From: Brachybacterium phenoliresistens | GTDB lineage: Bacteria; Actinomycetota; Actinomycetes; Actinomycetales; Dermabacteraceae | Assembly (NCBI RefSeq): GCF_000576425.1 | Contig: NZ_KK069988.1 | Span: 353,976-417,975 of the forward strand | Direction of reading: 5' to 3' | DNA: 64,000 nucleotides | In this document: piece by piece, positions 43,565 through 45,559 of the stretch | How positions within the stretch are numbered: the stretch's first letter is position 1 | Layout of the letters: every line of letters begins with the position of its first letter | Translations under genes and position numbers: made by a program | The notes under the pieces: generated by a model | Told to the model about the DNA's origin: nothing | What the model saw: only the letters and a program-made list of their open reading frames with translations | Databases searched by the model: none

Positions 43565-43624
43565 GCCCGCGCGCCGGGCGGCGTGTCCAGCGATTTCCCC
43601 AGGCTGACGTCATATCGTGGACGT

Positions 43625-44103
43625 CTGACCGAATCGTCATGCCCGTCCGCGCGGGAGAACCGCGGGCGGCGAACGCATCGATCCGAGGATCGGGCCGGTG
43701 CGTTCTCTTGATGGTGGTGAGTCAGGCGCCCCACCACAGACATCGACGGGCCCCAGGGCACATCGGTGGATGTCGAGTCTGACCAGCTCGAGACACCGCT
43801 CAGAGGGAGGTGACTACGTTGCACACACGCGAGAAGACCCACCAGGCCGTGCTTCCTCAGCGGCCTGCTCTGGAATCGACGTCAGCAGACAACCCCGGGG
43901 CAGGGACGAAACGGGGCGTCGAGCCTGGGACCATCCAGGACACGGGTGTGCACCGTGGGCGAGGGGAGACCGCGGCTCCGTCCGCGGCGTCACCGGGGAA
44001 GGGCTCGTTCCCGCCCCCGGACGGCGGGAGTGATCCCGTCACCCACGAGCAACCGGCATCCGAGGGTGGGACCTCGGATGCGCCTCGCCGCGCCGAGGCA
44101 CGG
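43625..44103 (+). ncRNA. Candidate omega (HEARO) RNA of IscB
   Basis: Roughly 480 nt before the conserved iscB start hold an almost unbroken series of hairpins. Examples are 43671-43705 (GAACGCA/TGCGTTC with an inner stem), 43710-43744, 43760-43773, 43876-43922 (TCGACG/CGTCGA), 43924-43939, 43941-43957, 43970-43987, 43993-44020, 44025-44038 (GTGA tetraloop), a perfect 10-bp stem at 44056-44081, and 44082-44099. IscB nucleases are guided by such RNAs encoded directly upstream, with the guide at the 5' end. A TATCGT -10 at 43613 would start transcription near 43625. The frame stays open from 43810, but about a quarter of codons there end in A or T, far more than in nearby genes. The true 5' end is not known. 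Confidence 0.55.
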
Positions 44104-45450
44104 GTGCTCGTCCTGGATCGGCGCGGGAAGCCGCTCATGCCCACGACTCCGCGTCGTGCGCGTCAGCTGCTTCGTTCCGGCCGCGCCCGAGTGCATCGGG
44201 TGCAGCCCTTCGTCCTCCGGATCGTCGACCGCAGGGTCGAGGACTCGGAGACAGAGCCCCTCGTCCTGGGCATCGACCCGGGATTCCGACATACCGGCGT
44301 CGCCCTGGCGCGCGAGCAGGAGGTCCCCGACCCCCGCAGCGGCCGGGCGACGACGATCCGACACGGCCTCTTCCTCCTGCGGGTGGACCATCGCGGCGCC
44401 GTGATCCGCGACCGCCTCTCGGCACGCTCCGCCCTGCGCCGCGGCCGGCGCTCGCGCAAGCTCCGCTACCGGGCGCCGCGCTTCGACAACCGCGCCCGTG
44501 CCGCGGGCTGGCTCGCCCCGTCGATCCGCCATCGGGCGGAGACCACCGTGACCTGGGCGCGCCGCCTGGCCGCCTGGGCCCCCGTGACGCGGATCGACCT
44601 CGAGGTCCCGCGCTTCGACGCCCGTGCCCTGCACCGGGCCGACGCCGCCGTGGGCGACCGCGGCCAGGGCACCCTGCACGGCACCGAGGTGCGCGAATAC
44701 GTCCTGGAGCGCGACGGCCGGACCTGCGTGTACTGCGGTGCGAGCGGCCTGGGCGCCGCCTCCGTCCCGCTCACGCTGGACCATGTGCGTGCCCGGGCGC
44801 ACGGCGGGCCGGACGCGCCGGCGAACCTCGTCGCCGCCTGCGTCCCCTGCAACCGCGACAAGGGCGACCGCGAGGTGGAGGAGTACCTCGCCCGCCGGCC
44901 CGCCGTGCTCGCCCGGGTGCGCCGCAGCCTCGCCTCCGTGGTGCAGCAGGACCTCTCGGTGTCCGTCTCCCGCAGCGCCCTCTGCCGCGCGCTGCAGTCC
45001 GTCGGCCCCGAGGTGCGCACCCACTCGGGAGGGCGCACCAAGTGGAACCGCTCCCGGGCCGGCCTGCCCTGGGACCACGTGACCGATGCGCTGTGCGTGG
45101 GCCGCGTCGACGCGATCGCGTCCCTGCCGGCGCTGCAGCATGTCGCCGTCTCCATGGGGCGCGGCTCCTATTCCCGCACCCGCATGGACCGGTACGGCTT
45201 CCCCCGGCTCCGCCTGACCCGGCGCAAGATGCACCACGGGCTGATCACCGGCGACCTGGTGCGCGCCGTGGTCCCCAGCGGCAGGAGAGCGGGGACCCAC
45301 GTGGGCCGCGTCGCCGTTCGGGCGAGCGGCTCCTGCAACATCACCACCGCCCGCAGCACCGTCCAGCACATCGGGCACCGCCACATCACCGTCCTCCAGC
45401 GCGGGGACGGGTACCGGCATCTCCGCGCGCCGGTGGCGCTGGCCGCCTGA
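44104..45450 (+). CDS. iscB: IscB RNA-guided nuclease (RRXRR/HNH, Cas9-ancestor family)
   Basis: Counted from GTG 44104 the protein has 448 residues. In order it shows the PLMP segment VLVLDRRGKPLMPTTPRRAR (1-20), RuvC-I LGIDPGFRHTG (Asp58), an Arg-rich bridge helix SALRRGRRSRKLRYR (109-123) and RuvC-II RIDLEVPRF (Glu167). The HNH domain has zinc Cys pairs CVYC (208/211) and CVPC (246/249) and catalytic LDHVRARAHGG (His227). RuvC-III is WDHVTDAL (His325, Asp328), and the target-interaction domain has TGDLVRAVVPSG and GTHVGRVAVRASGS. All nuclease residues are intact, so both strands could be cut. The frame is open back to GTG 43810 (546 residues; GGGAGG overlaps it and could serve TTG 43819). 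I prefer 44104 because family homology starts there and GAGG lies 5 nt ahead. Confidence 0.9.
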   Translation: MLVLDRRGKPLMPTTPRRARQLLRSGRARVHRVQPFVLRIVDRRVEDSETEPLVLGIDPGFRHTGVALAREQEVPDPRSGRATTIRHGLFLLRVDHRGAVIRDRLSARSALRRGRRSRKLRYRAPRFDNRARAAGWLAPSIRHRAETTVTWARRLAAWAPVTRIDLEVPRFDARALHRADAAVGDRGQGTLHGTEVREYVLERDGRTCVYCGASGLGAASVPLTLDHVRARAHGGPDAPANLVAACVPCNRDKGDREVEEYLARRPAVLARVRRSLASVVQQDLSVSVSRSALCRALQSVGPEVRTHSGGRTKWNRSRAGLPWDHVTDALCVGRVDAIASLPALQHVAVSMGRGSYSRTRMDRYGFPRLRLTRRKMHHGLITGDLVRAVVPSGRRAGTHVGRVAVRASGSCNITTARSTVQHIGHRHITVLQRGDGYRHLRAPVALAA

Positions 45451-45481
45451 GCGCTCTCTCGCCGGAGCTGCGAGCTGATGG

Positions 45482-45519
45482 GGTCGATCCGACCTCGTGC
45501 GCCGGTGGCAGAACGTGCC
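45482..45519 (+). other. Two short hairpins after iscB
   Basis: GGTCG-ATC-CGACC (45482-45494) and TGGCA-GAACG-TGCCA (45505-45519) follow the iscB stop. They could be a terminator or the subterminal hairpins typical of IS200/IS605-type ends. Confidence 0.4.
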
Positions 45520-45559
45520 AGGCGTGGAGTTGCCGGGCCCGAGCAGCGTGACGGCGCGC

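What the first reader, a model, noticed from the sequence alone, without database searches (positions are those of the whole stretch)
43600..45550. Complete actinobacterial IscB RNA-guided nuclease locus
The protein has every element of IscB in order: PLMP segment, RuvC-I Asp58, Arg-rich bridge helix, RuvC-II Glu167, Cys4 HNH with His227, RuvC-III His325/Asp328 and a target-interaction domain. It is preceded by a dense series of hairpins where the omega/HEARO RNA should lie. No TnpA is adjacent. To my knowledge few actinobacterial, very GC-rich IscB systems have been tested, so its RNA architecture and target motif may be new.
Basis: partly seen in the sequence, partly recalled or inferred. 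Interest (0 to 1): 0.9.

Follow-up and report, generated by a model that had tools for sequence, protein, structure and literature searches.

The report
Divergent IscB RNA-guided nuclease element
This stretch of bacterial DNA holds a small jumping-gene relic that still encodes an IscB enzyme, a cousin of the Cas9 ancestor, together with its guide RNA; it is a real but strongly diverged member of a known family rather than a new kind of system.

Summary
Window 44104-45450 encodes a 448-residue IscB: NCBIfam guided_IscB scores 334 bits against a cut-off of 175, the RuvC and HNH catalytic residues are present, and solved IscB/IsrB structures are the best fold matches. Just upstream, 43721-43993 is its omega (HEARO) RNA. 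Rfam RF02033 matches over its full length at E 2.9e-7, below the gathering score, and its helices covary across 44 loci.

The element probably runs from 43721 to about 45480, with 43705-43720 as guide. Of 38 genomes of the genus only this one has a full-length IscB; two congeners show the locus without it. No Y1 transposase was found in the genome.

The copy is unusual in divergence, not in kind: a long tree branch, loss of residues constant in relatives such as K323, an odd guide-adaptor loop, and a right end without the usual hairpin. It is probably immobile but intact; activity is untested.

In passing: related IscB elements usually end at an ATGA that opens the next gene (36 of 44 loci).

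The parts
43705..43720 (+). Predicted 16-nt guide segment (left flank directly 5' of the omega-RNA scaffold)
   Evidence: Position relative to the scaffold start at 43721 and the roughly 17-nt guide paired in the OgeuIscB structure (PMC9640706, passages). Inference; no RNA data.
43721..43993 (+). Omega (HEARO) RNA scaffold; left end of the element at 43721
   Evidence: RF02033 model 1-211 at 43721-43973, 42.8 bits, E 2.9e-7 for the genome and 6.2e-7 in cmscan. Covariation over 44 rows. Extension to 43993 by a terminal hairpin and CGTCAC as in several relatives.
43721..43727 (+). Guide-adaptor stem P1, 5' strand; 3' strand is 43777-43783
   Evidence: 7 of 7 pairs; this stem sequence occurs in none of the 52 other rows. 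Rows were located partly by this pairing, so it is a weaker test than the other helices.
43820..43826 (+). Central stem, 5' strand; 3' strand is 43946-43952
   Evidence: Helix 4: 97.7% of cells paired, all 7 pairs with changes on both sides.
43843..43867 (+). Nexus pseudoknot hairpin (43843-43849 with 43861-43867); loop CCTC 43855-43858 pairs GAGG 43961-43964
   Evidence: Helix 5: 96.1% of cells paired, all 7 pairs with changes on both sides; helix 6 is the pseudoknot, 89.8% paired, no pair with changes on both sides.
44104..45450 (+). iscB, 448 aa, GTG start; RuvC-I D58 (44275-44277), RuvC-II E167 (44602-44604), HNH H227 (44782-44784), RuvC-III H325 (45076-45078) and D328 (45085-45087)
   Evidence: GC by codon position 0.768/0.569/0.933.
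45475..45481 (+). Probable right end and target-site motif CTGATGG
   Evidence: Most relatives' copies compared lose similarity directly after (C/T)GATGA. Only such site between the stop codon and the host homology that starts by 45488-45495. The hairpin normally 5' of it is missing here. Inference.
43628..43720 (+). Structured 93-nt left flank of unknown origin that contains the guide
   Evidence: Folds better than shuffles, z -2.52, 4 of 200 shuffles as good; best match in the 37 other genomes of the genus E 9.6e-4 over 47 bases.
45495..45535 (+). Host right flank: remnant of a leader motif that lies 5' of a hemerythrin-domain gene in a congener
   Evidence: 85% and 83% identity to L115 and L122; hemerythrin Pfam match for the L115 ORF.

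Best explanation
It is one IS200/IS605-type, transposase-less IscB (OMEGA/HEARO) element of about 1.76 kb inserted beside a methyltransferase gene, where congeners have the leader of a hemerythrin gene that this genome seems to have lost at this place. A transcript through the left flank carries about 16 nt of flanking sequence (43705-43720) as guide, followed by the omega-RNA scaffold, whose pseudoknot and stems fold with the IscB protein. The complex would open double-stranded DNA that matches the guide next to a target-adjacent motif on the 3' side (predicted ATGR) and cut it with HNH and RuvC. In a mobile element this favours keeping or regaining the element by cutting copies of the site that lack it (recalled from TnpB/IscB work, not read here). 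Here the element looks immobile, with no TnpA found in the genome and a degenerate right end, so the nuclease most likely persists as a resident, possibly active, guide-RNA nuclease. Shown here: protein family, catalytic residues, RNA fold by covariation, absence in congeners, empty locus. Inferred: transcription, guide length, target motif, cutting, biological role.
For:: profile, sequence and fold matches to IscB; catalytic residues kept; omega RNA with covarying helices; in multi-copy relatives shared sequence starts within a few bases of the GTCA/GTAA that corresponds to HEARO base 1 and ends at or near GATGA, 1743-1772 aligned columns in the pairs that reach both ends, close to the 1760 bases of 43721-45480; a single copy, in 1 of 38 genomes of the genus and 1 of 47 of the family, own genome counted; congeners with the locus lacking it; no Y1 transposase found; codon-position GC typical of a maintained gene.
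Against: The HEARO score is below Rfam's gathering score. Residues nearly invariant in 70 relatives are changed (K323W 70/70, Y186R 68/70, Q187G 66/70, G183V 66/70), which could impair function. Two of the nine helices I drew are weak (65.4% and 70.7% of cells paired). The guide-adaptor loop is unusual, and the guide is predicted to pair with the scaffold or with its own flank. GC3 of the first 75 codons is only 0.827. No transcription, cleavage or target data exist.
Confidence: 0.8

Rival explanations
1. A decaying relic: the IscB is intact in frame but no longer a working nuclease, and the locus is slowly eroding after loss of mobility.
For: Tree end branch 1.13 against a median of 0.17. Loss of residues constant in relatives, including K323 two residues before the RuvC-III histidine and the YQ pair of the RuvC-II/HNH linker. 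Right end without hairpin. No TnpA found. One copy.
Against: 448 codons with no stop or frameshift; GC3 0.933, near two neighbouring host genes (0.951 and 0.968) though a third ORF, the histidine phosphatase, has 0.776; every catalytic and zinc-ligand residue checked is kept; RNA helices intact.
Confidence: 0.25
2. A domesticated IscB with a fixed guide: the element lost mobility, the guide sits in a structured 5' leader (43628-43720), and the protein has drifted to a host role such as regulation or defence against one sequence.
For: The 93-nt flank folds unusually well (z -2.52), and one of its hairpins ends 15-16 nt before the scaffold, depending on the stretch folded. The flank has no counterpart in the two congeners with the empty site. 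Divergent protein.
Against: Only one genome has it, so conservation of the guide or leader cannot be tested. In the fold of the whole flank the guide itself is paired. The guide has no convincing second target in the genome: one site with 1 mismatch, about 0.2 expected by my own rough estimate (one search gives the sites).
Confidence: 0.1
3. An unrelated HNH protein without RuvC homology beside a chance set of GC-rich hairpins.
For: Folding energy of the region is no better than shuffles. Many genomes of the genus hold proteins that match only the HNH stretch, residues about 195-260.
Against: Full-length IscB profile match, RuvC residues D58, E167, H325, D328, IscB fold, covarying HEARO RNA.
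Confidence: 0.01

Closest known systems
OgeuIscB (PDB 7XHT, 8CSZ; PMC9640706, passages and sections 8-9 read)
   Same: Domain order PLMP, RuvC-I, bridge helix, RuvC-II, HNH, RuvC-III, WED/TI as the paper describes; RuvC D61/E193/H340/D343 and HNH H247 correspond to D58/E167/H325/D328 and H227; guide 5' of a scaffold with guide-adaptor hairpin, central stem and nexus pseudoknot.
   Different: Low identity (19% in the Foldseek alignment to 8csz). Window protein is shorter (448 against about 495). The K before the RuvC-III motif is W. Target motif of OgeuIscB is given as NNRR; predicted here ATGR.
IscB elements of Xylanimicrobium pachnodae (L045, L049) and a Micrococcaceae bacterium (L037)
   Same: L045 and L049 are the nearest rows by tree path and L037 groups with them, support 89/81; the omega-RNA core of L049 is closely similar by eye.
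   Different: 48-51% protein identity; window lacks the standard guide-adaptor inner hairpin and the right-end hairpin.
Streptomyces sp. AP-93 IscB elements (L031, L036, L042, L097)
   Same: Same element plan and same start of the RNA; about 1.74 kb (L097 is about 0.1 kb shorter).
   Different: Four copies in one genome; three of the four end at CGATGA, L031 near AAATGA. 49-51% protein identity to the window.
HEARO nucleases of PMC9755519 (passages read)
   Same: HEARO RNA 5' of a RRXRR/HNH ORF; the paper says only a few sit beside TnpA.
   Different: Some of those were shown to cut; this one is untested.

Membership tests
IscB (NCBIfam NF040563 guided_IscB) | Full-length profile match above the curated cut-off | tested here: met
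   334.1 bits against 175; profile 2-314 of 314, protein 2-333
IscB (NCBIfam NF040563 guided_IscB) | Split RuvC with bridge helix and an inserted HNH, catalytic residues intact | tested here: met
   D58, E167, H325, D328, H227 present; conserved in 69-70 of 70 relatives; Pfam RRXRR and HNH
IscB (NCBIfam NF040563 guided_IscB) | N-terminal PLMP segment | tested here: met
   P10 L11 M12 P13; P10 in 68, P13 in 69 of 70 relatives, M12 in 41
IscB (NCBIfam NF040563 guided_IscB) | C-terminal WED/TI domains | tested here: inconclusive
   Most relatives align to about residue 437 or beyond and IscB/IsrB chains are the top ten fold hits, but TM-score is about 0.5 with large rmsd (6-16) and the C-terminal part was not compared on its own
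IscB (NCBIfam NF040563 guided_IscB) | RNA-guided cleavage of double-stranded DNA next to a target-adjacent motif | not testable with these tools
   Needs biochemistry
Omega / HEARO RNA (Rfam RF02033) | Score at or above Rfam's gathering threshold of 83 bits | tested here: not met
   42.8 bits, E 2.9e-7, full model length
Omega / HEARO RNA (Rfam RF02033) | Conserved helices with covariation, pseudoknot, position 5' of iscB | tested here: met
   91.0% of cells paired against 64.8% in shuffles, score 0.639 against 0.185, slid versions at most 0.136; pairs with a change on both sides 27 against 24.3, reached by 12 of 500 shuffles
IS200/IS605 element, autonomous | Y1 (HUH) TnpA in the element or genome | tested here: not met
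   0 matches to PF01797 in the genome at E <= 0.001; 5 of 14 control genomes ring
IscB mobile element ends | Left end at omega-RNA base 1, right end hairpin followed by (C/T)GATGA | tested here: inconclusive
   Left end fits; right end has CTGATGG but no hairpin
Type II-D Cas9 (Cas9d) | Profile match above cut-off and larger REC-bearing protein | tested here: not met
   NF049971 44.2 bits against 375; 448 residues

The most novel reading that the evidence does not exclude
The copy is a host-captured IscB that has stopped moving and works with one permanent guide, presented by a structured 5' leader (43628-43720). The loss of otherwise constant residues (K323, Y186, Q187) marks a change of activity, for example nicking or binding rather than double-strand cutting.
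Probability: 0.08. Interest if true: 0.65.

Novelty: new member of a known kind. Interest (0 to 1): 0.36.

Why it matters
IscB is the nuclease family from which Cas9 is thought to have come, and compact members are sought as editing tools. This one is small (448 aa), very GC-rich, about 50% identical to its nearest relatives and naturally altered at residues constant or nearly so in 70 others, so it is a useful test of which IscB residues are dispensable. The comparison also gave a testable rule for the family: elements end at an ATGA that is usually the next gene's start codon.

Tried and rejected
Tried without gain. The default Rfam scan found nothing. Folding energy of the upstream region does not separate it from shuffles. 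Sigma-70 promoter and terminator scans found none. Phage records gave no DNA match; viral contigs gave 5 protein relatives, 32-47% identical; plasmid records gave 84 with a protein match, none above 60% identity, and 8 with short DNA matches. The left flank gave only short, chance-like matches in the genus. The guide has no convincing second target in the genome: one site in a surface-protein-like gene has 1 mismatch, and I estimate roughly, without a call, about 0.2 such sites by chance. A weak ASdes match on the minus strand inside the coding sequence (24.6 bits, gathering 40) is taken as chance. Two DNA matches of the right end (L130, L136) read as uvrA-like coding sequence by my own reading and are taken as chance.

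Considered and rejected: an ORF starting at 43810 through the omega RNA (GC3 0.745); an unrelated HNH protein; a Cas9d.

Limits of my counts. The conservation and tree sets used 70 of 80 relatives; 10 fragments or broken copies were dropped by hand (L065, L090, L092, L094, L095, L096, L098, L100, L103, L110). L093 has an in-frame stop and was left but not. Of 81 rows, 70 gave a left-end call. Ten of these were dropped by eye as poor calls, and 16 more lacked the loop or 3' motif used to cut them out, leaving 44 rows. The 53 rows still include several poor left-end calls. P1 and pseudoknot rows were located with those very motifs, so those two helices are partly circular; the central stem and pseudoknot hairpin are not. 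One pair in the structure I gave (columns 260-357) was wrong and counts against it. The structure was drawn on the window, which favours it over slid versions in cells paired. The right-end set (44 of 80 loci) was chosen by a pattern that contains ATGA, so its ATGA column is by construction; at least L064 is mis-picked inside the hairpin, L083 and L086 are doubtful, and L033/L034 share one insertion. One search printed 37 of 44 because it also counted L071, whose frame runs off the contig at 46 codons; the strict count is 36 of 44, and 33 of 40 without those four. One search looked at reverse-strand loci on the wrong side; one search repeats it with the right orientation.

Full report
WHAT IS THERE. 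It matches the NCBI family for RNA-guided IscB over the whole profile (334.1 bits, cut-off 175), Pfam RRXRR (187 bits) and HNH (42 bits). By sequence it matches PDB chains named IscB: TbaIscB 1.4e-36, HfmIscB 1.1e-23, OgeuIscB 1.6e-23. An AlphaFold2 model built on 39 aligned sequences (mean pLDDT 82.6, pTM 0.74) has IscB or IsrB as all of its top ten Foldseek hits, though with TM-scores of only about 0.5 and large rmsd. Residues D58, E167, H227, H325, D328 and cysteines 208, 211, 246, 249 are conserved in 69 or 70 of 70 relatives and present here. D58, E167, H227, H325 and D328 correspond to D61, E193, H247, H340 and D343 of OgeuIscB as named in PMC9640706 (passages read).

THE RNA. The curated Rfam threshold is not reached, but the HEARO model matches its full length at 43721-43973 (42.8 bits, gathering 83, E 2.9e-7 for the genome). 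I therefore tested the structure directly. In 44 loci (window plus 43 relatives) the helices drawn on the window pair in 91.0% of cells against 64.8% in shuffles. The covariation score is 0.639 against 0.185, and no slid version exceeds 0.136; the number of pairs with a change on both sides is a weaker signal, 27 against 24.3 (12 of 500 shuffles reach it). The central stem and the nexus pseudoknot hairpin change on both sides at every one of their 14 pairs. Two of the nine helices are weak (70.7% and 65.4% paired), one of them through a pair I drew wrongly. The window's own P1 stem, GTCAGGC with GTCTGAC, is found in none of the 52 other rows and pairs 7 of 7. The pseudoknot loop CCTC faces GAGG, like the C93-C96 with G155-G158 pairing of OgeuIscB (PMC9640706 section 8). 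What differs is the loop inside the guide adaptor, where most relatives carry a CCCC...GGGG-type hairpin and the window a weak one (by eye). A member in the same order (L151) also seems to depart from the standard there, as read by eye.

TRANSLATION START. The frame is open from 43810, through the RNA. GC by codon position is 0.735/0.653/0.745 in 43810-44103 against 0.768/0.569/0.933 in the gene. The methyltransferase and transporter genes have 0.951 and 0.968 at the third position; the histidine-phosphatase ORF has 0.776, and the first 75 codons of iscB 0.827. So coding most likely starts near 44104.

THE ELEMENT AND ITS ENDS. Streptomyces sp. AP-93 holds four copies among the fetched loci and Vreelandella massiliensis seven, one of them partial. 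In the pairs compared similarity starts within a few bases of the GTAA or GTCA that corresponds to HEARO base 1 and, in the pairs that reach both ends, covers 1743-1772 aligned columns; pairs with L097 stop at about 1638. Right ends read (C/T)GATGA in the AP-93 and V. massiliensis copies shown except L031, which ends near AAATGA. By that rule the window's element is 43721 to about 45480. The left end fits. At the right end CTGATGG (45475-45481) is the only candidate, but the stable hairpin that precedes it in relatives is absent. The left flank directly before 43721 then supplies the guide, 43705-43720. The DNA 43628-43720 folds better than shuffles (z -2.52), and one of its hairpins stops 15-16 nt before the scaffold, depending on the stretch folded. 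Its origin is unexplained.

WHERE IT CAME FROM. Of 38 genomes of the genus and 47 of the family, own genome counted, only this one has a full-length IscB; the other matches in the genus cover the HNH part only, with one reaching from residue 152. It occurs in 2 of 396 sampled genomes of the order at E <= 1e-40, own included. Seventeen of 38 genomes, own included, carry the left-hand methyltransferase region. In two of the other 16 (L115/L161 and L122/L159) its start codon is followed after about 55-80 bases by a leader motif homologous to window 45495-45535, and in L115 by a hemerythrin-domain gene; the remaining 14, one of them only partly held, show other sequence within 400 bases. So the window has an insertion where those two congeners have none; 43607-43720 also has no clear counterpart in them. 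The gene is at home in composition, so the insertion is probably not very recent. In a tree of 71 rows it sits with L037, L045 and L049 (support 89/81, not a firm fork), but on an end branch of 1.13 against a median of 0.17; the program warns that such a placement is unsure.

DIVERGENCE. Against 70 relatives the window changes K323 to W (70 of 70 K), Y186 to R (68 of 70 Y), Q187 to G (66 of 70 Q) and G183 to V (66 of 70 G). K323 stands two residues before the RuvC-III histidine; Y186-Q187 lie in the linker between RuvC-II and HNH, which the model predicts poorly (pLDDT under 50 at 172-191). With no TnpA found in the genome (the same search rings in 5 of 14 control genomes) and a degenerate right end, the element is most likely immobile. 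Lack of TnpA next to IscB is normal: PMC9755519 (passages) reports that only a few HEARO nucleases sit beside TnpA.

HOW IT WORKS. The best-supported reading is a standard OMEGA nuclease: guide from the left flank, scaffold bound by IscB, target opened next to a 3' motif, strands cut by HNH and RuvC. Protein identity, RNA fold and element plan are shown here. Transcription, guide length, motif and cutting are inferred from OgeuIscB and the family. The main rival is a relic with a dead or weakened nuclease; the second is a domesticated form with one fixed guide.

NOVELTY. It is a new, divergent member of a known kind. In the open-access library, searches for IscB with HEARO, omega RNA and Actinobacteria, IscB with Streptomyces and IscB with Brachybacterium, a guess at the genus that no call supports, listed no study of this system by title. 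Only listings were seen for these, and subscription papers are not covered.

IN PASSING. Across the family the right end abuts genes in a striking way. In 36 of 44 loci with a recognised right end the ATG of ATGA opens an ORF of at least 60 codons, against 232 of 620 (37%) for [GA]ATGA sites in the same flanks (binomial p 2.0e-9; 33 of 40 and p 6.5e-9 without four doubtful or repeated loci; not corrected for shared descent). Of seven such proteins scanned, GalE matches its profile from residue 1, and IMP dehydrogenase, RuvX and ArgS from residues 9-14, as native starts would. Several actinobacterial right ends carry a purine-rich, ribosome-binding-site-like stretch before that ATG (by eye). 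A search for IscB with start codon and insertion site gave 3 papers, none on this by title; I looked at passages of one (PMC13180657) and they do not treat it.

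Noticed in passing
Right ends of IscB elements in L031-L107, e.g. L033:4404, L042:4415, L043:4406, L062:4454: Elements end at (C/T)GATGA, and in 36 of 44 loci the ATG opens a downstream ORF of 60+ codons, among them housekeeping genes (guaB, ruvX, galE, argS); baseline 232 of 620. Suggests that the IscB target motif ATGA makes insertions dock at start codons without breaking the gene.
   Followed up: partly
L032, L033, L034, L060 right ends: Actinobacterial right ends carry a purine-rich, ribosome-binding-site-like stretch (such as GAAAGGAA, AGGAGG) a few bases before the ATGA, as if the element replaces the host gene's own site (by eye).
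   Followed up: no
window 43628-43720: 93-nt flank folds into a three-way-junction-like structure (z -2.52) whose 3' strand is the predicted guide; no clear counterpart in the two congeners with the empty locus and no convincing relative in the genus.
   Followed up: partly
window 45495-45535; L115:1501-1541; L122:1501-1541: About 40-nt leader motif conserved in two congeners, in L115 5' of a hemerythrin-domain gene; the window keeps the motif but not the gene at this place.
   Followed up: partly
G000:C23:1074-1089 (L175): Closest match of the predicted guide elsewhere in its own genome: 15 of 16 bases, followed by ATGC, in a surface-protein-like gene; about 0.2 expected by chance by my rough estimate.
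   Followed up: partly
L093 (uncultured Spirochaetales): IscB copy with an in-frame stop codon although its upstream omega RNA looks intact by eye.
   Followed up: no
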